Below, piece by piece: positions 1,579 through 26,480 of a stretch of DNA of 64,000 nt; position 1 is the stretch's first letter; each line of letters opens with the position of its first letter. The stretch comes from Pedobacter segetis. Lineage in GTDB: Bacteria > Bacteroidota > Bacteroidia > Sphingobacteriales > Sphingobacteriaceae. The notes under the pieces were generated by a model, which saw only the letters and a program-made list of their open reading frames with translations, searched no databases and had not been told where the DNA came from. The position numbers and the translations under genes are program-made. The stretch spans positions 62,001-126,000 of the forward strand of contig NZ_JAEHFY010000007.1 in NCBI RefSeq assembly GCF_016623585.1, read 5' to 3'.

Positions 1579-1589
1579 TTTTATAAGTC

Positions 1590-2064
1590 ATTAGTTAATT
1601 AGTCATTGGTTCATTAGGCTTTTGATAGTTGATTAAGTATTGGTTCATTAGGCTTTTGATAGTCTATTAGGCATTAAATAGTTCATTAGTCATTGGTTCA
1701 TTAGGCTTTTGATAGTCTATTAGGCATTAATTAGTTCATTAGTCATTGGTTCATTAGTCTTATTATATGGAAATTAGATTTAGTTCCCATTTAATAAGGT
1801 CTTGCTTCTTGCTTCTTGTATCTCATTTAGTTCCCATTAAATAAGGTCTTGAATCTTGATTCTTGAATCTCATTTAGTTCCCGTTAAATAAGGTCTTGAA
1901 TCTTGATTCTTGAATCTCATTTAGTTCCCGTTAAATAAGGTCTTGATTATTGATTCTTGTATCTCATTTAGTTCCCATTAAATAAGGTCTTGATTCTTGA
2001 TTCTTGTGTCTCATTTAGTTCCCGTTAAATAAGGTCTTGATTCTTGCCTCTTGATTCTTGTGTC
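1590..2064. repeat. Compound tandem repeat block (about 52-nt units, then 47-nt units built on TCTTGNN heptads)
   Basis: This gene-free stretch is almost entirely repeat. From about 1590 to 1765 there are roughly three imperfect units of about 52 bases rich in GGTTCATTAG and GGCATTA. From about 1775 to 2064 there are six units of 47-49 bases, each with TTTAGTTCCC(A/G)TTAAATAAGG followed by two to four heptads of the form TCTTGNN. Units differ at a few fixed positions. The block starts directly after the permease stop codon (minus strand) and ends just before the DUF3347 start. The same two repeat types, in the same order on the plus strand, recur at 15341-15665. Confidence 0.9.
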
Positions 2065-3215: not shown

Positions 3216-4433
3216 CTACATATTCATTCCGCTCATCATGTTGCCGCCTTTTTTTAAAACAAATTCACTTGTTAACAAATAAGCTCCGCTAACCACTACA
3301 TTATCTCCAATCTTTATTCCGCTTTTTATAATGGTAGAAGCTTCGCTTTCATCTCCAATTTCTACCATCCGTACAGCAAACCTGTGCTTACCGGTTTCAA
3401 TCCAAACATAATTCCCTTTTTCGTCTCTGATTACCGCATCGTTAGGGACAGATATTATTGCGCTTTTATTGGCCGAAGGGAATTTTACTTGCGCTTGCAT
3501 CCCGGGCTGAAAGTCTCCTTTCAGGTTTGGGAGGTTTGCCCTAATCGTTAGAATTTGGGAGTTAGCATTTAATTGTGGGTTGATGAAATCGATTTTACTT
3601 TGGATGGGTGCATTAGCAAATCCCGAAACTTCAATTTGTATAGATGTTCCGGTCTTTAAGTCTTTAATCTCTGATGGATAAACATCTGCCTCTAACCATA
3701 AATTACTCAAATTTTCAATGGTCATTAAACCCATGCCTTCGGTAATATATTGCCCTTCTGTAATCGTCATTTCTGTGATTAAGCCAGTATCTGGCGCATA
3801 AACAGTAATATAGGGATCGGTTTTGTTTGCAGTTGATAATTGCTTTATCTGCCAAGTAGAGTAGCCATAAAGTGATAATTTGTTTTTAGCGGCCTCTGTT
3901 AGTTTTTTATAAATAGGTTCTGATGGGAAAGCATTTTCTTGTTTTAAGTTTAACAAATAATCTTTTTGTAAACTCAACAGATCTTCGCTATAAATCTGGA
4001 ATAAAGCTTGCCCTTTCTCAATTTTTTGTCCCGCTTCTTTAAAATATAATCTATCGATGCGGCCGCTAAATTTGCTAGAAATTACTTGTATTTTGTTTGG
4101 ATTGGTTACTATTCTGGCGTTCAACAATTTACTATGGTTAAAATTGCCGTTACCAACCGAAATGGTTTTCACGTTAGCTAACTCAATTTGTCTATCATTA
4201 AGTGTTAAACCATTGTTGTTGCTTTTTTGTTGGGTTATTTTTACCAAATCCATATTACAAATAGGGCAGGAGCCGGGATGATCTTCTACTATTTGTGGGT
4301 GCATTGGGCAGGTATATTTTGCTTCAACCAAAGCTTTTTCTGTTTTTTTATCCCCTTTTGAAGAACAAGAAATAAACAATACCCCAAAACAAAAAAGCAA
4401 TAAGAATAAACTTAAATATTTTAATTTTTTCAT
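3216..4433 (-). CDS. CusB-type RND efflux adaptor with heavy-metal-binding domain (second copy)
   Basis: Periplasmic adaptor joining an RND metal pump to its outer-membrane channel (405 residues). A lipobox places the acylated Cys at residue 23. Residues 40-63 form a heavy-metal-binding domain with two Cys pairs and MHP/NMDL motifs (YTCPMHPQIVEDHPGSCPIC). After it come the barrel-sandwich/lipoyl halves (KLYFKEAG, then APDTGLITEMTITEGQYI), a helical hairpin and beta-barrel domains. The C-terminus is methionine-rich (GGNMMSGMNM), which fits copper or silver. The gene begins 1 base after the stop of the first adaptor, so the two are co-transcribed. The sequence differs clearly from the first adaptor, so this is not a recent duplication. 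Confidence 0.93.
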   Translation of the reverse strand: MKKLKYLSLFLLLFCFGVLFISCSSKGDKKTEKALVEAKYTCPMHPQIVEDHPGSCPICNMDLVKITQQKSNNNGLTLNDRQIELANVKTISVGNGNFNHSKLLNARIVTNPNKIQVISSKFSGRIDRLYFKEAGQKIEKGQALFQIYSEDLLSLQKDYLLNLKQENAFPSEPIYKKLTEAAKNKLSLYGYSTWQIKQLSTANKTDPYITVYAPDTGLITEMTITEGQYITEGMGLMTIENLSNLWLEADVYPSEIKDLKTGTSIQIEVSGFANAPIQSKIDFINPQLNANSQILTIRANLPNLKGDFQPGMQAQVKFPSANKSAIISVPNDAVIRDEKGNYVWIETGKHRFAVRMVEIGDESEASTIIKSGIKIGDNVVVSGAYLLTSEFVLKKGGNMMSGMNM

Positions 4434-4434
4434 C

Positions 4435-5673
4435 TTAATTTATTTTGATAAAACTTTCCGTATCGATTAAATAACTGGCATTATCTGCAATTTCATCCCC
4501 AACTTTTAAACCTTTTATGGTCAATTTTTTTCCATTACTAATCCTAGAAATTTCAACTTCTTTAGCTGTTAAAACATTGTTTTTTTTGATGAAAACAATA
4601 CTTCTGTTTCCTAATTGATAAACGGCCGAACTAGGCACCCATAATCCTGTTTGGGCCGGTATAACTACTTTGCCTTTTAGTATTTCTCCGATCTTAAAAA
4701 CATGGTCGCTATTATGGAGGTAAACCCTTAAAACGTTAAAATTCTGCCCTTCATTAAAATAAGGTTGTATCAAATCTATTTTTGCTTTTACTTTTTTATG
4801 GTTAGTAGAAATGGTAATACTTTCATCTTTTTTGATGGATGTAGCTTCGTTTGGGTTTGCATAAAACTCTCCCCAAACCTCGTTATCATCAAACACCTTA
4901 AAAAGTACGTCGCCAGTTTTAATATAAGCACCTTCTTTTAAGGCAATTGCCGTATTTTCTGTGGGCATATAATTTTGTTTATCTGTATTTGATGCAGCAT
5001 CCATCACATAACCAGAAGCGTTACTAAAAACTGGAATACGATAATTGACCTTTCTTGTACTAATTATTTGATTGATCTGTGGTTCTTCAATTCCCAATAA
5101 TCTCAATTTCGTTTTAGCCTGTGCCAATAGATCAACATCGCCTTTGGCTAAAAGAAATAAAAGTTCTTGTTGTGCGGCAGCCAATTCTGGGCTATAAATC
5201 TCCATTAGCTTTTGCCCTTTGTTCACTTTCTCAAAATTATACCTCACATACAATTTCTCTATCCTACCACCAACCCTAGCGCTTAGGGTTCTCATATTAT
5301 TGGTGTTATAAGTTACCTTTCCGTTTAAAAATAAGCTATCGCCAAAACTTTGCTCTATAACTTTATAGGTTTTGATGTTGCTTACAATGTTCTCATTTGT
5401 TGGTTGTATCAAATTTGATAACGAAGCATCAACTTGCATTTTAACCTCTTGTTGATGCCGTAAAACCAAATCCATTCCGCATAGAGGGCATTGCCCCGGT
5501 TTATCTTCTACAACTTGCGGGTGCATAGAACAAGTATAAGTTTGCTCGATAGCTGTTTTTTTAAGAGATTTTTCACTTTTCTGCTCACAAGCACTTAATC
5601 CTAAAACCACCAGAAAGCATAAAACTGTCTTAAAAGCTAATTTTACCTTCCACCCTAAAGCTCTAACTTGCAT
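4435..5673 (-). CDS. CusB-type RND efflux adaptor with heavy-metal-binding domain (first copy)
   Basis: Periplasmic adaptor of the CusB/CzcB class. The open frame extends to 5724, but that would overlap the TolC-type gene by 50 bases; the ATG at 5673 lies 1 base after that gene's stop and directly precedes the signal sequence, so I prefer it (412 residues). The leader ends in a lipobox (VLGLSAC). The heavy-metal-binding domain follows (YTCSMHPQVVEDKPGQCPLC, then GMDL), then barrel-sandwich, hairpin and beta-barrel domains. Two adaptors with one pump suggests either a mixed adaptor ring or an accessory metal-loading role for one copy; the sequence cannot tell which. Confidence 0.92.
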   Translation of the reverse strand: MQVRALGWKVKLAFKTVLCFLVVLGLSACEQKSEKSLKKTAIEQTYTCSMHPQVVEDKPGQCPLCGMDLVLRHQQEVKMQVDASLSNLIQPTNENIVSNIKTYKVIEQSFGDSLFLNGKVTYNTNNMRTLSARVGGRIEKLYVRYNFEKVNKGQKLMEIYSPELAAAQQELLFLLAKGDVDLLAQAKTKLRLLGIEEPQINQIISTRKVNYRIPVFSNASGYVMDAASNTDKQNYMPTENTAIALKEGAYIKTGDVLFKVFDDNEVWGEFYANPNEATSIKKDESITISTNHKKVKAKIDLIQPYFNEGQNFNVLRVYLHNSDHVFKIGEILKGKVVIPAQTGLWVPSSAVYQLGNRSIVFIKKNNVLTAKEVEISRISNGKKLTIKGLKVGDEIADNASYLIDTESFIKIN

Positions 5674-5674
5674 A

Positions 5675-6922
5675 TTAAATCTCCACATTTCTCTCATATT
5701 CTGTTTGTGTTTGGTAATACTCATTTAATAGCATTAAGTAATTCAATTGGCTATCGTTCAGTTCTTTAAATGCTGTTAAAACTGTATTTAGCTCTTCTTT
5801 ATTTTCTTGATAATTTAATAAAAGCACTTCATAGCTTTTTTGCATAGCTGGTAAAATTTTATCCCTATAAACACTTAGTTCCATTTGCATGTGCATCAGA
5901 TGTTTTTGCTGTGTGGCAATTAATCCTAATAAATTGTTGGTTGCGTTTTCTTTTTGATATTGCATGGCGGCAACCTCAAACTGATTGGCTTTTAATTTAG
6001 ATTGATAAGATTTGGATGCCCAAGGCGCAATAGGGATACTCAAACTTCCCATCAAAGAAAATTGGTTTGGCCTGCTGGTATTATACGTTTGCATGTGGTT
6101 AAACTGGATGCTAAATTCTGGTTTGGCTTCAGTTGCGATCATTTTATTTTTTAGGTTTAAGCTGTTGATCTGCTCATTTACCATTTTAATGCTGCTTCTG
6201 TTGTTGATGGCTTCGGTCAAATCGTTTTGCATCATATAAGCCGTAAAAGATTGTGCAGTATCAATCAAAAAATCAATAGAATTATCTCTATTCATTAAAG
6301 TGTTGAGCTTAATTTTCCCAATATCTATTTTGGCTTTCGCCGATGAGATTTTATTTTCTGTCTCATAGATTTTAGCCTGCAAACTATATATTTGGGCTAA
6401 TCCGGCTTTGTTATAGGTATATCTTATTTCTGCCAGTTTCTTTAAGTTTTGTAAAACTTGAAGGTTTTTTGTAAGATAATCGAGGCTTTTTTGGATCGTA
6501 AGCACTTCATAATAATTAGAGCGGGCCAACGCCCTTAAATCGTTAAAATTATCTGCGTTTAGTTGCTTGGTAATATTAGATTGTGCCTTTAAATAAGCCT
6601 CGGTGGTTTTAATCTTAGATCTGTTGGGTATTTTTTGCTCTGCCACCAACATTATAGAACCATCTTGTTGGTTTTCAGGTCTCGAAAAATTATTATAAGG
6701 GGTCATAAACGTACCAACACCAAGCATCGGAGCCATCCAAGCCGAAGCTCCACCTACCAAAGCATCTTGGCTTTTCATCTGCTCTTGGTAAACTTTAAGT
6801 TCAGGATTATTTGTTTTGATGATGCTGATCACGGAGTCTAAACTCAAAATATTTTGCGCAAATATTACCGAACTCATCAGCATCAGCGAAAGCGTAAAAA
6901 TTATTTTTTTAGTGTACAACAT
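5675..6922 (-). CDS. TolC family outer-membrane efflux protein (CusC-like)
   Basis: Outer-membrane channel component of the metal exporter (415 residues, usual for Bacteroidota CusC-type proteins). An N-terminal signal peptide ends near residue 23 (VIFAQ). Two similar long helical halves follow, each with the family pattern of N-P-E-L near the start (IIKTNNPELKVYQEQ), long coiled-coil helices, and a beta strand containing small residues and prolines (LMGSLSIPIAPWASK). Its first 14 bases overlap the end of the CusA C-terminal half gene (6909-6922), a typical operon junction that supports translation of that half gene. Confidence 0.93.
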   Translation of the reverse strand: MLYTKKIIFTLSLMLMSSVIFAQNILSLDSVISIIKTNNPELKVYQEQMKSQDALVGGASAWMAPMLGVGTFMTPYNNFSRPENQQDGSIMLVAEQKIPNRSKIKTTEAYLKAQSNITKQLNADNFNDLRALARSNYYEVLTIQKSLDYLTKNLQVLQNLKKLAEIRYTYNKAGLAQIYSLQAKIYETENKISSAKAKIDIGKIKLNTLMNRDNSIDFLIDTAQSFTAYMMQNDLTEAINNRSSIKMVNEQINSLNLKNKMIATEAKPEFSIQFNHMQTYNTSRPNQFSLMGSLSIPIAPWASKSYQSKLKANQFEVAAMQYQKENATNNLLGLIATQQKHLMHMQMELSVYRDKILPAMQKSYEVLLLNYQENKEELNTVLTAFKELNDSQLNYLMLLNEYYQTQTEYERNVEI

Positions 6923-8810
6923 CTAATACCTCCAGTTTTCCAAATTTTTTAAGTTCATATTCTTTTGTCATTAAAAATATCAATGGTGTAACCAATAATA
7001 TATGTGTTGATGAGGTTAAAACCCCACCGATCATGGGTAAAACAATGGGTAGCATCACATCGCTTCCTACTCCGTTGCTCCATAAAACGGGTATCAAACC
7101 AAACAAGGCTACGCAAACCGTCATTATTTTTGGTCTCAACCTTTTTGCGGCACCCATTATCACGTAGTTTTTTAGGTCTTCCTTGGTAATGGTTTCTCTA
7201 GAGTTTCCTTTCTCTTTTACCAATTGTTGCATGGCATCGTTTAAGTAGATTACCATTACCACCCCGGTTTCAACCGCTATCCCAAATAGGGCGATAAACC
7301 CCACCGCTACTGCAATAGAGAGATTTACCCCATAAAAATAGACCATAAAAGCTCCGCCAATTAGTGCAAATGGGATGGTTACCAAACTCAAAAATGCTTC
7401 CCTTAAAGATTTAAAGGCTAGATAAAGCGCAAGAAAAATGATGATGAGTACAATGGGCAAGATCAATAAAAGCGTTTTTTCTCCACGGATCAAATTTTCA
7501 TATTGCCCGCTCCATTCTATAAAATATCCCTTTGGCAAATTCAGTTCGGCATTTATTTTATCTATGGCTTCTTGTACCGTTGTTCCTAAATCACGATCCC
7601 GCACATTAAACATTACCGCCCCCCTCAATAAAGCGTTTTCTGAAGTGATCATTGGTGGGCCATCTGCAAATTTAAAATCAACCACGCTCGATAGCGGAAT
7701 TATGCCGGCATCTTTAGAGTTTAGCGGAATTCGTTTTAGTTTTTCGATGCTATTCCTGTAATCTTGCCCTATCCTCAAAGAAATTCCAAATCGTTCTCTA
7801 CCTTCAATGGTTGAGGCAAAGGGAACGCCCCCGATAGCTGCTTCAACTGTGGTATTTACATCATCCACAGATAAACCATATCTCGAAATCTCATCTCTTT
7901 TGATGTTCATTTCCAGATATTTACCTCCGGTTACAGGTTCTACGTATAGGTCTTTAACACCGTTTATGGCCGTTAGCTTATCTTTTATCTGATTTTCTAC
8001 TTTATAGATGTCTTTTAGGTCTTGCCCATAAACTTTAATGCCTACATCTGTCCTTATCCCGGTTGAAAGCATATTTATGCGATTGATGATGGGCTGTGTC
8101 CAACCGTTTACCACTCCCGGGATTTGAAGTTTACCATCTAATTCTTCGATGATCTTTTTCTTGGTCATGCCCGCCCGCCACTGATCTTTCGGCTTTAGCT
8201 GGATAATGGTTTCGATCATGCTCAAAGGCGAGTTGTCTGTTGCCGTATTTGCCCTGCCCGCTTTCCCTAAAACTTGTTGCACTTCTGGTGTAGATTTGAT
8301 GATTTTATCCTGTACCTGTAAAATCCTTTTGATCTCAGAGTTAGAAACATCTGGTAAGGTAACCGGCATAAAAAGGATAGATTGCTCATCTAAAGGGGGC
8401 ATAAACTCCCTGCCCAAACTAAGAAGCAAGGGGATGCTAATTAGCAAAGCCAAAATATTAATGCCAATAGTTGTTTTTCTGTATCTTAAACAAGCCTTAA
8501 TGGTTGGTTCATAAATCCGTTCTAAAAACCTGTTTATGGGGTTATGATGGTCTGGCTTAAAATTCCCCTTCATAAAAAAGGAGATGAGAACAGGAGCAAG
8601 TGTTACCACTAAAAAAGCATCTACAATTAAAATAAATGTTTTGGTATAAGCCAAAGGATGAAAAAGCTTACCTTCTTGTCCGCCCAATAAAAACACCGGT
8701 AAAAAGGAAGTAATAATAATTATAGTAGAATAAAAAACTCCTCTTGAAACCTGTTTACAAGCTCTTTCTATGATGTTTAAACGTTCTTTTTCTGTTAATT
8801 TTGTACTCAT
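6909..8810 (-). CDS. CusA-type heavy-metal RND pump, C-terminal half of a split gene
   Basis: Residues 1-633 correspond to the second part of a CusA/CzcA pump, starting in the cytoplasmic loop after TM4. TM5 and TM6 come first (VFYSTIIIITSFLPVFLLGG), then the second periplasmic region with INMLSTGIRTDVGIKV and PPMITSENA, and TM8-TM12 at the end. By recalled alignment, the Met in NMLSTG and the Met in PPMI match two of the three copper-binding methionines of E. coli CusA (573 and 672); the third (623) has no obvious equivalent. The ATG at 8810 follows an A-rich leader supplied by the inserted element. With the 425-residue N-terminal half this makes 1058 residues, essentially a full pump. It may be a pseudogene or a functional split protein. 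Confidence 0.88.
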   Translation of the reverse strand: MSTKLTEKERLNIIERACKQVSRGVFYSTIIIITSFLPVFLLGGQEGKLFHPLAYTKTFILIVDAFLVVTLAPVLISFFMKGNFKPDHHNPINRFLERIYEPTIKACLRYRKTTIGINILALLISIPLLLSLGREFMPPLDEQSILFMPVTLPDVSNSEIKRILQVQDKIIKSTPEVQQVLGKAGRANTATDNSPLSMIETIIQLKPKDQWRAGMTKKKIIEELDGKLQIPGVVNGWTQPIINRINMLSTGIRTDVGIKVYGQDLKDIYKVENQIKDKLTAINGVKDLYVEPVTGGKYLEMNIKRDEISRYGLSVDDVNTTVEAAIGGVPFASTIEGRERFGISLRIGQDYRNSIEKLKRIPLNSKDAGIIPLSSVVDFKFADGPPMITSENALLRGAVMFNVRDRDLGTTVQEAIDKINAELNLPKGYFIEWSGQYENLIRGEKTLLLILPIVLIIIFLALYLAFKSLREAFLSLVTIPFALIGGAFMVYFYGVNLSIAVAVGFIALFGIAVETGVVMVIYLNDAMQQLVKEKGNSRETITKEDLKNYVIMGAAKRLRPKIMTVCVALFGLIPVLWSNGVGSDVMLPIVLPMIGGVLTSSTHILLVTPLIFLMTKEYELKKFGKLEVLDVVH

Positions 8811-9085
8811 GTTTTTAATTATTTTGTAATCGGCTTTCAGTAATCGGTATTCGGTATTCGGTAATCGGTTTTCGGTGATCAGTAGTCGGTTTTCGGTAAT
8901 CTGTAATCGGTATTCTGTAATCGGTAATCGGTTTTCGGTGATCAGTCAATCGGGTTGCAATTTTCCATAAAACAAGCAACCGATTACCGAATACAACTAA
9001 CCCATAACACAAGCAACCGAATACAACTAACCCATCAATCAAGAAAATCCGAATACAGCTAACCCATAAAACAATCAACCGATAT
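8811..9085. repeat. Heptad-repeat/hairpin module, left copy
   Basis: Begins right after the four-helix-bundle gene's stop and ends at the start codon of the CusA C-terminal half (minus-strand sense). On the plus strand, 8826-8945 is a run of degenerate heptads (A/T)TCGGTN. Positions 8944-9034 are an about 90-base core nearly identical to 9621-9710 in the right copy. Inside the core, GGTTGC pairs with GCAACC around a short loop, and CCGATTACCGAATAC is complementary to the heptads GTATTCGGTAATCGG, so the module can fold into a long hairpin. The end shared with the right copy is TTTTTAATTATT, which reads AATAATTAAAAA just before ATG on the minus strand. Confidence 0.88.
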
Positions 9086-9460
9086 TTATTTACAAAAAAG
9101 CTCTGCTTTGTTAATCATAGAACCAATCATTTTACCCAAAGTGGCATATTGTTTCAATAAATCGTTTTTTATTTCATCTGATAAATACAAACAATCGTGG
9201 GCTGTTTCAATCCAATGTTGTGTTTCTTGTTGTTCTGCATCTCCATCAGTAAGTTTGCTGATAAAATGTTTTTCATATTTCCTTTTTGCCCAAGCTTCTG
9301 CTATTTGAGCTCCAACCGACCTTGATGACCTTCTGATTTGATCTGTTAGAGAGTACATTTCTTCTTTCGGAAATCTCTTAGTCAATTCAAAAATCTCTTT
9401 AGATAATTTTCTCGAAAGCTTGTAGCTCTCTAAATCACTAAATCTTTTTACGTAATCCAT
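9086..9460 (-). CDS. Four-helix-bundle protein (23S rRNA intervening-sequence / S23 family)
   Basis: A 124-residue helical protein with the family features: F-x-x-L-E-x-Y-K-x-S near the start, FPKEEMYSLTDQIRRSSRSV in the middle, and a late amphipathic helix (LGKMIGSMINKA). Relatives are encoded in intervening sequences of bacterial 23S rRNA genes, and the fold is shared with the accessory protein Avd of diversity-generating retroelements, a basic pentamer that binds RNA. Its biochemical role in the intervening sequences is unknown. Here it lies between two direct repeat modules inside a split cusA gene, in the same orientation. A cargo or RNA-binding role for the repeats is inference. The product is intact, with no frameshift. 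Confidence 0.9.
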   Translation of the reverse strand: MDYVKRFSDLESYKLSRKLSKEIFELTKRFPKEEMYSLTDQIRRSSRSVGAQIAEAWAKRKYEKHFISKLTDGDAEQQETQHWIETAHDCLYLSDEIKNDLLKQYATLGKMIGSMINKAELFCK

Positions 9461-9770
9461 TTTTTAATTATTAATTTTTATTAATCGGTATTTTGTTTTT
9501 AGTTTTCTGATAATCAGTAATCGGTTTTCGGTGTTCTGTATTCGGTGATCGGTTTTCGGTAATCGGTTTTCGGTATTCGGTGATCGGTTTTCGGTGATCT
9601 GTATTCGGTATTCGGTGATTAGTCAATCCGGTTGCAATTTCCATAAAACAAGCAACCGATTACCGAATACAACTAACCCATAACACAAGCAACCGAATAC
9701 AGCTAACCCAAAACACAAGCAACCGAATACAACTAACCCATAAAACAAGCAACCGAATACAACTAACCAC
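9461..9770. repeat. Heptad-repeat/hairpin module, right copy
   Basis: Starts just upstream of the four-helix-bundle start codon and ends at the stop of the CusA N-terminal half (minus-strand sense). On the plus strand, 9500-9620 holds about sixteen degenerate heptads (A/T)TCGGTN. The core at 9621-9710 matches the left copy. Then about 30-base units (CCGAATACAACTAACCCATA plus AAACAAGCAA) repeat four times up to 9768. The gene-proximal end carries the same TTTTTAATTATT as the left copy. This accounts for the whole gap of about 300 bases. Confidence 0.88.
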
Positions 9771-11040
9771 CATCTAATTCCTCTTGCCTAATGGAAAGCT
9801 GTTTATAAGCGTTTTCACTCATGATAATTCCGTTATCTACAATTACCCCAATGGCTAAAGCAATTCCTGTTAAAGACATAATATTAGAACTGATACCGAA
9901 AGCATTTAACAAGATAAAACTTGCTGCAATGGTAATCGGGATTTGGATAATGATGCTGATGGCACTTCGCCAATGCAGTAGAAAAAGGAATACGATGATA
10001 GAAACTACAATCATCTCTTCGATCAGTGTATGTTTAATGCTGTTTATAGATTCTTTTATCAGTTTTCCACGATCATATACAATGTTGAATTTCATACCAG
10101 CGGGCAAACCTTTAGCTACTTCATCCATTTTTAGTTTAACACGATTGATTACCTCATCGGCATTTTCTCCCGTTCGCATCACTACAATCCCTCCAACCGC
10201 TTCTCCGTTTCCGTTCAGATCAAAAATACCCAACCTAGCTTTACCGGCCATTTGTACTTGGGCAACGTCCTTAATTTTTATTGGGATAGAATTATTTGTT
10301 TTAATGGCGATATTCTCAATTTCTTGGATAGATTTTAGATAACCCGAAGTTTTGATGATATAACCCATATCGCTCATCTCAAATTTTCTTCCTCCAGCTT
10401 CGTTGTTATTGCTGTTTACCGCGTCCATTATCTCTTTAATCCCCACTTTATAATAGTTGAGTTTATTAGGGTCAATAGTGATTTGATATTGTTTCTCAAA
10501 CCCACCGAAAGAAGCAATCTCGCTTACACCATCTACATTCTGAAGCGCAAATTTCACATACCAATCTTGGGTTGCCCTTTGCTCGCCCAAATCCATTCCA
10601 TCGGTTTGCAAAGTGTACCACAAAACATGGCCAACTCCGGTACCATCTGGGCCAAGTGTTGGGGTTACGCCAGTTGGTAAGCTTGCATTAACGGTACTCA
10701 GTTTTTCTAAGACCCGTGATCTTGCCCAGTAGTTATCTACACCATCCTTAAAAATGATATAAATAAAACTCATCCCAAACATAGAATTTGCCCTCACATA
10801 TTTAACGTTAGGGATGCCTTGTAAGCCTGTTACCAATGGGTAAGTAATCTGGTCTTCAATAATTTGGGGGCTTCTGCCTTGCCATTGGGTAAATACAATA
10901 ACCTGGTTTTCAGAAAGGTCTGGTATGGCATCAATCTTATTGGTTTGTACGGCATAAATACCGAAACCAAATAGTACAACCGCTAAAAGCAAAACCATAA
11001 TTCTATTGCGTAACGAAACCGCAATTAGTTTTTCAATCAT
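9763..11040 (-). CDS. CusA-type heavy-metal RND pump, N-terminal half of a split gene
   Basis: A 425-residue protein covering TM1, the first periplasmic porter region and TM2-TM4 of a CusA-type pump. Signatures include MIEKLIAVSLRNRIMVLL, IDAIPDLSENQVIVFTQWQG, TLGPDGTGVGHVLWYTLQ and the TM4 segment IALAIGVIVDNGIIMSENAY with the proton-relay aspartate. It ends a few residues into the cytoplasmic TM4-TM5 loop (RQEELDGG) at a stop supplied by the repeat element. The cut is therefore in a cytosolic loop, where two polypeptides could in principle assemble. It is the first large gene of the metal operon, 75 bases after the HYC_CC_PP gene. Confidence 0.88.
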   Translation of the reverse strand: MIEKLIAVSLRNRIMVLLLAVVLFGFGIYAVQTNKIDAIPDLSENQVIVFTQWQGRSPQIIEDQITYPLVTGLQGIPNVKYVRANSMFGMSFIYIIFKDGVDNYWARSRVLEKLSTVNASLPTGVTPTLGPDGTGVGHVLWYTLQTDGMDLGEQRATQDWYVKFALQNVDGVSEIASFGGFEKQYQITIDPNKLNYYKVGIKEIMDAVNSNNNEAGGRKFEMSDMGYIIKTSGYLKSIQEIENIAIKTNNSIPIKIKDVAQVQMAGKARLGIFDLNGNGEAVGGIVVMRTGENADEVINRVKLKMDEVAKGLPAGMKFNIVYDRGKLIKESINSIKHTLIEEMIVVSIIVFLFLLHWRSAISIIIQIPITIAASFILLNAFGISSNIMSLTGIALAIGVIVDNGIIMSENAYKQLSIRQEELDGG

Positions 11041-15340: not shown

Positions 15341-15665
15341 GTTTTAGTTCATTAGGCATTGGTTCATTAGTACTTGCAATGTTGTTTTGGTTCATTAGGC
15401 ATTGGTTCATTAGTACTTGCAATGTTGTTTTGGTTCATTAGGCATTGGTTCATTAGTATTTGAAATGTTTGTTTTGGTTCATTAGGCATTGGTTCATTAG
15501 TATTTGCAATGTTTGTTTTAGTTCATTAGGCATTGGTTCATTAGTACTTGCAATGCTTGTCTAGTTTGAGGATAAAATATCTTGCATCTTATTTCTAATA
15601 TCTTGTTTCTTGTCTCTTGTTTCTTGTCTCTTGTCTCTTGTCTCTTGTTTCTAATGTCTTGCATC
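15341..15665. repeat. Compound tandem repeat block (about 46-nt units, then TCTTGNN heptads)
   Basis: The gap between proA and the convergent peptidase-like gene is almost all repeat. About five units of 45-48 bases (TTCATTAGGCATTGGTTCAT plus TAGTACTTGCAATG) run from the proA stop to about 15560. They are followed by about ten near-perfect heptads TCTTGNN (15594-15655) that end at the stop of the minus-strand gene. Type and order match the block at 1590-2064. Each end touches a stop codon. Confidence 0.92.
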
Positions 15666-15677
15666 TAATCAAAAAAG

Positions 15678-26334: not shown

Positions 26335-26480
26335 TCCTCAACCTCGTCCTCAACCTCAACCTCGTCCTCAACCTCAACCTCAACCTCGTCCTCAACCTCA
26401 ACCTCGTCCTCAACCTCAACCTCGTCTTCCTCAATCTCAACCTCGTCCTCAACCTCAACCTCAACCTCGTCCTCAACCTT
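26335..26480. repeat. Hexad repeat CCTC(A/G)(A/T) between adaptor and pump genes
   Basis: About 24 hexads, mostly CCTCAA with CCTCGT at irregular positions, fill the 183-base gap between two genes of one operon. The block starts a few bases after the adaptor's stop codon (minus strand). On the transcript it would read as a purine-rich run of GAGGTT/GAGGAC units. The interspersion is irregular, unlike a simple microsatellite. Confidence 0.92.

What the first reader, a model, noticed from the sequence alone, without database searches (positions are those of the whole stretch)
8811..11040. A pump gene split into three apparently translatable cistrons by a self-punctuating repeat/four-helix-bundle cassette
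Seen directly: the CusA-type pump is divided into 425 + 633 residues, with no obviously missing segment, in its cytoplasmic TM4-TM5 loop. Between the parts lies repeat module, four-helix-bundle gene, repeat module. The stop of the N-terminal half sits inside a repeat unit, and each module ends in AATAATTAAAAA directly before an ATG: one belongs to the four-helix-bundle gene, the other to the C-terminal half. The insert therefore appears to provide both the stop and the next start. Established: four-helix-bundle proteins of this family occur in 23S rRNA intervening sequences, where the rRNA is cut but still works as fragments. Inference: this could be the protein-level analogue, an insertion tolerated because both halves are translated and assemble.
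Basis: partly seen in the sequence, partly recalled or inferred. Interest (0 to 1): 0.82.

Follow-up and report, generated by a model that had tools for sequence, protein, structure and literature searches.

The report
Two-gene metal pump hosting a passenger
A metal-export pump that is normally one protein is encoded as two separate genes across much of a bacterial class, and in this genome a small passenger gene with self-pairing repeats has landed in the gap between the two pump genes rather than breaking the pump.

Summary
The anatomy is confirmed: CusA-type pump parts of 425 and 633 residues, with repeat module, PF05635 four-helix-bundle (FHB) gene and repeat module between them. The causal reading is wrong. 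The cassette did not split the pump. In the closest relatives the pump is already two genes, 58-206 nt apart. Across the class I found 193 distinct two-gene copies, 8 fused and 8 loci with the N-half gene at the far end of the operon (C-TolC-MFP-MFP-N). The tree fits one old fission and four re-fusions; homologues listed from other classes are almost all one gene. So this looks like an ancient two-subunit RND pump. The FHB cassette later replaced about 64 nt of the gap, including the C-gene's short leader. Pontibacter oryzae carries an independent FHB cassette in the same gap. FHB genes in this family often have complementary flanks (38 of 90, against 1 of 147 control genes), as in 23S rRNA intervening sequences, but between genes of operons. 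Pump function, assembly and RNA processing are untested. My literature searches found neither feature in print.

The parts
9763..11040 (-). cusA-N: N-terminal pump subunit, 425 aa, equals E. coli CusA residues 8-428; carries the invariant Asp (D401) of the GVIVDNG motif
9461..9768 (-). repeat module 1: 30-nt units (GTATTCGG-type strand) then complementary heptad-type units, ending AATAATTAAAAA before the FHB ATG; the stop of cusA-N lies in its first unit
9086..9460 (-). four-helix-bundle gene, 124 aa, PF05635 23S_rRNA_IVP (S23-type); weaker match to bAvd PF22296
8811..9085 (-). repeat module 2, 87% identical to module 1 over 246 nt, self-complementary and complementary to module 1, ending AATAATTAAAAAC before the cusA-C ATG
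6909..8810 (-). cusA-C: C-terminal pump subunit, 633 aa, equals E. coli CusA residues 437-1042; methionines M148, M198, M247 invariant in 42 C halves; short leader MSTKLTEK instead of the longer cationic leader of most relatives
5675..6922 (-). outer-membrane efflux (TolC-like, PF02321) gene, overlaps the end of cusA-C by 14 nt
4435..5724 (-). periplasmic adaptor (CusB-type, PF16576 plus HMBD) gene 1, overlaps the TolC-like gene
3216..4433 (-). periplasmic adaptor (CusB-type, PF16576 plus HMBD) gene 2

Best explanation
The pump is an ancient two-subunit HME-RND transporter. A single fission in the cytoplasmic TM4-TM5 loop, early in the history of this CusA clade, turned cusA into two genes, cusA-N (TM1-4 plus the first periplasmic domain) and cusA-C (TM5-12 plus the second), whose stop and start codons usually overlap or nearly touch, and the two proteins assemble into one pump (translation coupling and assembly are inferred; helix numbers are recalled from CusA). 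In most lineages cusA-C has a short cationic leader. Because the junction is now an ordinary gap between genes, it collects insertions. In this genome an FHB cassette of the S23/intervening-sequence type, with repeat modules that can pair across it, replaced about 64 nt of the gap including the cusA-C leader, and its A-rich module ends serve as translation starts for the FHB gene and for cusA-C. The cassette most likely behaves as a transcript-embedded selfish element like a 23S rRNA intervening sequence: its arms form a stem in the operon mRNA that RNase III could cut, separating the cusA-N, FHB and cusA-C messages (this last step is inferred).
For: Split present without insert in the nearest relatives, with stop-start forms such as TAATATG, TGATATG, ATGA, ATGTGGAATAA. 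Family search: 101 of 301 genomes carry it, and of the listed matches only G306, G207 and G142 are fused. Class search: 55 of 395 genomes, only G668, G391, G029 and G035 fused among the listed matches. 193 distinct adjacent split copies and 8 fused; in 162 of 190 the C start chosen lies within 15 nt of the N stop, in 99 overlapping it. Eight loci have the order C-TolC-MFP-MFP-N (in L246 only the last 71 residues of the C half are in view) and form one clade in FastTree. Careful tree: the 60 split rows plus 8 fused rows form a clade (100/99), 5 changes forced by starred branches, outgroup fused. Purifying selection on both halves. 135 of 175 C halves have a leader of 14 aa or more, with net positive charge in the first 12 residues in 135 of 135. 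One record is annotated as two CDS overlapping by 1 nt. Cassette: the window spacer folds with 176 pairs between the two modules across the FHB ORF; FHB flanks complementary in 38 of 90 against 1 of 147 controls; an independent PF05635 gene (E 1.8e-16) with arms complementary at 31 of 33 positions lies in the same gap of Pontibacter oryzae.
Against: No expression, protein or transport data. dS is about 0.7 to over 1.7 and some branch estimates come out infinite or negative, so timing and recent relaxation are poorly resolved; cusA-N of the window has a somewhat higher branch dN (0.020-0.026) than its sister branches (0.012-0.021), while cusA-C does not (0.018-0.024 against 0.020-0.026), though one of four cusA-C branch ratios is higher in the window (0.081 against 0.022). 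FastTree on more rows needs 6 changes rather than 5 (7, which still held the misclassed L026). The AlphaFold model of a fused homologue is weak (mean pLDDT 54) and that of the C half moderate (71; best PDB match CusA but with rmsd near 10). Each window module also folds well on its own, so the long stem is only one option. Complementary arms pass the threshold in 38 of 90 FHB loci, in at least half of the members at 17 of 36 sites, and in 2 of the 6 own-genome loci (L002, L003).
Confidence: 0.85

Rival explanations
1. The cassette inserted into an intact cusA, split it into two still-translated cistrons, and is a protein-level analogue of the rRNA intervening sequence.
For: Module ends provide the stop of the N half and the starts of FHB and the C half; both halves are intact and constrained.
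Against: Relatives without any insert are already split; the split is spread over the class, and in 8 loci the halves are far apart in the operon.
Confidence: 0.02
2. The pump is a decaying pseudogene and the halves are remnants.
For: Some plasmid records list no gene over the halves, as if they had been taken for broken genes.
Against: The two-gene form is kept in many genera, dN/dS is 0.024-0.037 for the window against its two nearest relatives, the TM4 Asp and three methionines are invariant, and stop-start spacing is tight.
Confidence: 0.04
3. A single full-length pump is still made by frameshifting or stop read-through at the junction.
For: Many copies have ATGA overlaps, which put the halves one frame apart with a tiny gap.
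Against: Distances range from -29 to +1073 nt between copies, I saw no shared slippery sequence in the junctions printed (by eye), and in 8 loci the halves are 3.6-4.6 kb apart in reverse order.
Confidence: 0.05
4. The FHB gene is an ordinary host operon gene with a cellular role and the repeats are unrelated intergenic arrays.
For: Given co-directional neighbours, FHB genes are in sense as often as other genes (86% and 86%); several sites recur in many genomes (up to 16 loci); 52 of 90 loci do not pass the arm threshold.
Against: Tandem arrays, mostly of period 7/14/21, lie within 250 nt in 62 of 90 FHB loci against 54 of 354 control genes, and complementary flanks in 38 of 90 against 1 of 147; two arrays without FHB in the same window are not self-complementary.
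Confidence: 0.3

Closest known systems
E. coli CusA and the HME-RND (CusA/CzcA) permeases
   Same: Homology along both halves; methionines and TM4 Asp kept; operon with TolC-like and CusB-type adaptor genes
   Different: Encoded, and presumably made, as two polypeptides broken between CusA residues 428 and 437
SecD/SecF (RND-superfamily pair made as two proteins or one; recalled)
   Same: An RND-type protein that exists both fused and as two gene products
   Different: SecDF is divided between its two six-helix repeats; here the break is after TM4, giving 4 + 8 helices (recalled topology)
23S rRNA intervening sequences with S23p ORFs (e.g. Coxiella, PMC4990558, abstract and passages seen)
   Same: FHB ORF enclosed by complementary borders within a longer transcript
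   Different: Sits between protein genes of an operon, with tandem heptad-type arms, not in the 23S rRNA gene; excision not shown
TAACTGA heptamer arrays upstream of start codons in Beggiatoaceae and some Bacteroidetes (PMC4679880, passages seen)
   Same: 7-nt tandem arrays between genes ending close to a start codon
   Different: One fixed heptamer there; here the units differ from site to site, and in many loci the two flanks are complementary and enclose an FHB gene

Membership tests
HME-RND permease (CusA/CzcA, TIGR00914) | Homology over the whole permease | tested here: met
   N half covers model 1-427, C half 430-1036; PDB CusA 8-428 and 437-1042
HME-RND permease (CusA/CzcA, TIGR00914) | TIGR00914 curated cut-off (701 bits) by one protein | tested here: not met
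   447 and 611 bits for the separate halves, as expected for a divided protein
HME-RND permease (CusA/CzcA, TIGR00914) | TM4 proton-relay Asp and substrate methionines (residue roles recalled) | tested here: met
   D401 invariant in 10 N halves; M148, M198, M247 aligned with CusA methionines of MPSTLPG, LEMVET and NRIDMLSTG and invariant in 42 C halves
HME-RND permease (CusA/CzcA, TIGR00914) | One polypeptide of 12 TM helices | tested here: not met
   Two ORFs here and in 193 of 201 distinct copies and in 8 permuted loci
HME-RND permease (CusA/CzcA, TIGR00914) | Metal transport | not testable with these tools
   No assay data
S23 / 23S rRNA intervening sequence element | PF05635 four-helix-bundle ORF | tested here: met
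   E 6.2e-30, 104 bits against cut-off 33.8
S23 / 23S rRNA intervening sequence element | ORF enclosed by complementary borders able to form a stem | tested here: met
   176 pairs between modules in the MFE fold; window locus L003 scores 29 against threshold 28 with 150-nt flanks; group test 38 of 90 against 1 of 147
S23 / 23S rRNA intervening sequence element | Located in an rRNA gene | tested here: not met
   Lies between two protein genes of an operon
S23 / 23S rRNA intervening sequence element | Excised by RNase III | not testable with these tools
   No RNA data
Diversity-generating retroelement Avd | NCBIfam DivGenRetAVD curated cut-off (80 bits) | tested here: not met
   35.9 bits; bAvd-like PF22296 just passes its cut-off (41.7 against 40)
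Diversity-generating retroelement Avd | Reverse transcriptase with template/variable repeats nearby | not tested
   No dedicated search was made

The most novel reading that the evidence does not exclude
FHB/S23 cassettes of Bacteroidota are intervening sequences of messenger RNA: self-pairing FHB elements that insert between genes of operons, are cut out or cut open by RNase III, and so are tolerated, with the two-gene CusA pump providing a landing gap at least twice independently (the window genome, whose nearest named relative is a Pseudopedobacter MAG, and Pontibacter oryzae).
Probability: 0.4. Interest if true: 0.85.

Novelty: new variant of a known kind. Interest (0 to 1): 0.76.

Why it matters
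A heavy-metal RND pump that much of a bacterial class keeps as two separately encoded proteins, broken after the fourth helix, gives a natural test of how such trimeric pumps fold and assemble (if trimeric like CusA, six chains), why evolution has held the halves apart, and why several lineages joined them again. It also suggests that annotation may take these genes for broken ones. The FHB result makes an open question, what S23-type proteins outside rRNA genes do, directly testable in ordinary laboratory Bacteroidota.

Tried and rejected
Rejected: insertion as the cause of the split (insert-free split relatives); frameshift as a general explanation (varied distances and permuted operons); decay. 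No target-site duplication of the cassette is visible by eye: the gap seen in L181 is replaced, not duplicated. Direct-repeat flanks as the general rule for FHB cassettes: strong in the window and a few loci but only 13 of 90 or 10 of 90, against 8 of 147 controls. Sense orientation as a special property of FHB genes: no more than control genes once neighbours are co-directional (86% and 86%); only the share with co-directional neighbours differs (86 of 94 against 224 of 355), and many loci are the same site in different genomes (36 sites in the 90-locus set). A methyltransferase reading of the frame in the L155 gap and any name for the L179 frame: no Pfam match.

Duplicates were dropped by the last 600 nt of the N half (215 loci gave 198 distinct; 201 after additions). 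L026 (open frame 601 aa, ambiguous) was left out but was. L199 ends at a contig end just after the N half. In one search the row G864 (426 aa) lies at a contig edge and was not classed. Genes were called by a simple ORF rule; for the window FHB (L003) that rule took a spurious ORF in module 2 as downstream neighbour, of the same strand as the true one. The 95 FHB loci are from the stronger matches; one (L321) lacked a neighbour and four loci with several FHB genes were left out of the flank tests. The C start was taken as the ATG nearest the N stop. Matches beyond the listing limits were not examined. The fused-protein model was used only for the position of two helices.

Literature: for the split pump and 19, 41, 69, 80 and 90 for FHB cassettes (listings seen; passages of PMC4679880, PMC4990558 and PMC5524665). 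I saw neither feature described; the library lacks most subscription journals and preprints. PMC5524665 tables an FHB gene between guanylate kinase and nicotinate nucleotide adenylyltransferase genes in Flavobacterium columnare, which fits the same placing.
Full report
WHAT IS IN THE WINDOW. The three ORFs, their lengths and order are as reported: cusA-N 9763-11040 (425 aa), FHB 9086-9460 (124 aa) and cusA-C 6909-8810 (633 aa), all on the minus strand. The outer two are consecutive parts of an HME-RND permease: TIGR00914 positions 1-427 and 430-1036, and E. coli CusA residues 8-428 and 437-1042. Nothing conserved is missing. The break falls between the fourth and fifth membrane helices (topology recalled; a weak model of a fused homologue, pLDDT 54, has helices 387-418 and 423-451 on either side). 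The genes downstream, an outer-membrane efflux protein and two CusB-type adaptors, overlap or nearly touch one another and cusA-C, which suggests one operon. The middle ORF is PF05635 23S_rRNA_IVP. The modules are near copies, 87% over 246 nt, of 30-nt and 7/21-nt units.

THE SPLIT IS OLDER THAN THE CASSETTE. In 41 genomes (own plus relatives) searched with cusA-N, each listed match of the family at 63% identity or more ended in its own frame of 429-469 aa. In the 16 closest loci (L008-L023) the homologous parts are 58-206 nt apart, with the stop of one gene overlapping or near the start of the next (in L017 137 nt before it, with a repeat between), and no cassette. The two nearest, L008/L181 (a contig of a Pseudopedobacter MAG in the named collection) and L009, have N halves 94% and 93% identical to the window's and a 64-nt gap. 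In a 301-genome family search 101 genomes carry the gene and only three listed matches are fused (G306, G207, G142). In 395 genomes of the class 55 carry it, with four fused among the listed matches (G668, G391, G029, G035). Eighty named loci include Pedobacter, Mucilaginibacter, Sphingobacterium, Chitinophaga, Niastella, Pontibacter, Rufibacter, Hymenobacter, Flavobacterium, Kaistella, Cytophaga and Runella; of these 80, 76 are split with the C half adjacent, one (L234, a Saprospiraceae MAG) is fused, and three had no C half in the adjacent stretch (L199 at a contig end, L233 and L246, see below). Together, 201 distinct copies with both halves adjacent or fused: 193 split, 8 fused. In classes outside the window's, the listed homologues are single frames of at least 1,031 aa, except G830 and G845 (next paragraph) and G864 at a contig edge. 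Homologues within the class with frames of 1,215-1,304 aa, matching less well, are not split.

THE HALVES ARE INDEPENDENT GENES. In eight loci the C half was not beside the N half. With more sequence, all eight show the order C half, TolC, adaptor, adaptor, N half, with 3.6-4.6 kb between the end of the C half and the start of the N half. In L246 only the last 71 residues of the C half lie in the locus. G830 and G845, from another class, belong to this set. The eight form one clade in FastTree. In the gap of adjacent copies other genes have settled: heavy-metal-binding-domain proteins (PF19335; L166, L174, L231, L241), and frames without a Pfam match (L155, L179), besides repeat-like sequence seen by eye (L017, L082, L086, L089, L093, L098). 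A Mucilaginibacter robiniae plasmid is annotated with two permease genes overlapping by 1 nt. Plasmids of Pontibacter actiniarum and Spirosoma linguale list no gene there (that table leaves out pseudogenes).

ORIGIN AND COUPLING. In a careful tree of 80 N halves, the 60 split rows and 8 fused rows form a clade with 100/99 support, with fused outgroups; starred branches force five changes, most simply one fission and four re-fusions (L024; L135, L137 and L139; L173, L025 and L165; L234). FastTree on 228 rows needs six; in the FastTree L173 stood apart from L025 and L165, at support 12. Such counts cannot by themselves tell gain from loss; the fused outgroup makes this direction the simplest. 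Of 190 distinct adjacent split copies, the nearest C start lies within 15 nt of the N stop in 162 and overlaps it in 99; 54 are at -4 (ATGA). The distances vary and I saw no shared slippery site in the junctions printed. Of 175 distinct C-half N-termini, 135 have a leader of 14 aa or more; its first 12 residues are net positive in 135 of 135, the whole leader in 124; the window (MSTKLTEK), Pontibacter and the group with MTTAERIK lack it. I infer a membrane-targeting or topology role.

CONSTRAINT. Between the window and L181/L009, dN/dS is 0.024-0.037 in both halves. The window branch of cusA-C has dN 0.018-0.024 against 0.020-0.026 on the sister branches; that of cusA-N is somewhat higher than its sisters (0.020-0.026 against 0.012-0.021). 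dS is high and some branch estimates fail, so this is a coarse test. The TM4 Asp and three methionines are invariant. The C-half model (pLDDT 71) matches CusA structures best, with a large rmsd.

THE CASSETTE. Its insertion replaced the gap: L181 has 64 nt between the homologous parts, and none of it (old stop, start and leader) is recognisable in the window. The same gap in Pontibacter oryzae (L182) holds another PF05635 gene (E 1.8e-16) between arms complementary at 31 of 33 positions; the Pontibacter loci L183, L187 and L196 have gaps of 53, 176 and 55 nt, too small for it. The own genome has six PF05635 genes, all six in sense between co-directional neighbours. Over 94 FHB loci, neighbours are co-directional with each other in 86, against 224 of 355 control genes; the 90 loci used further fall into 36 sites. 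Tandem arrays, mostly of 7, 14 or 21 nt, lie within 250 nt in 62 of 90 loci against 54 of 354 control genes. The telling feature is complementarity between the upstream and downstream flank: 38 of 90 pass a threshold set at the 99th percentile of mismatched pairs, against 1 of 147 control genes (Fisher p 7e-18, ignoring shared ancestry); 17 of 36 sites have at least half of their members above it, 24 at least one. Of the six own-genome loci two pass, L002 and the window's L003 (29 against 28). In the window the spacer folds with 176 pairs joining the two modules around the FHB ORF, though each module can also fold alone (z -4.6, -4.8). Two arrays in the same window without an FHB gene are not self-complementary. 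This is the plan of a 23S rRNA intervening sequence: FHB ORF inside complementary borders, described for Coxiella as a selfish element cut by RNase III (PMC4990558, abstract and passages). Whether the mRNA versions are cut is unknown.

HOW IT MOST LIKELY WORKS. Shown by sequence: two genes, a split older than the cassette, and a cassette between them. Best fit of the tree: one fission and several re-fusions.

NOVELTY. Literature searches showed me neither the two-gene CusA nor operon-spacer FHB cassettes with complementary arms; the library is partial. I rate it a new variant of known kinds.

On rechecking I corrected the distance in the permuted operons, the branch rates, the unsupported name of the L155 frame, and added the Pfam test of the P. 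oryzae gene; confidence in the best explanation went from 0.86 to 0.85 because of the cusA-N rate and the FastTree count.

Noticed in passing
window 1579-2064 and 15341-15677: Two further tandem arrays fill whole intergenic gaps, with their own heptad-type units and no FHB gene; they are not self-complementary.
   Followed up: partly
window 26335-26479: Array of CCTCAA/CCTCGT-type hexamers, 18-nt period.
   Followed up: partly
L004, L262, L263, L267, L268, L282, L284, L298, L300, L302, L315, L324, L326, L333, L338, L346: Sixteen loci share an FHB gene at the same site, apparently between argC- and argD-type genes (names by eye from L004), with differing arm scores: old insertion or a repeated target.
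   Followed up: partly
L291 (G058:C25): Three PF05635 genes in a row within 3.4 kb.
   Followed up: no
L166, L174, L231, L241: Small heavy-metal-binding-domain (PF19335) protein genes sit between the two pump genes, possibly functional partners of the pump.
   Followed up: partly
L001, L002 (own genome): The module after the upstream gene and the module after the FHB gene begin alike, as in the window, suggesting some cassettes carry or duplicate the local module.
   Followed up: partly
L401, L402 (plasmids of Pontibacter actiniarum and Spirosoma linguale): No gene is listed over the split pump; in Spirosoma the locus tags skip from Slin_6820 to Slin_6822, as if a pseudogene had been called.
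   Followed up: no
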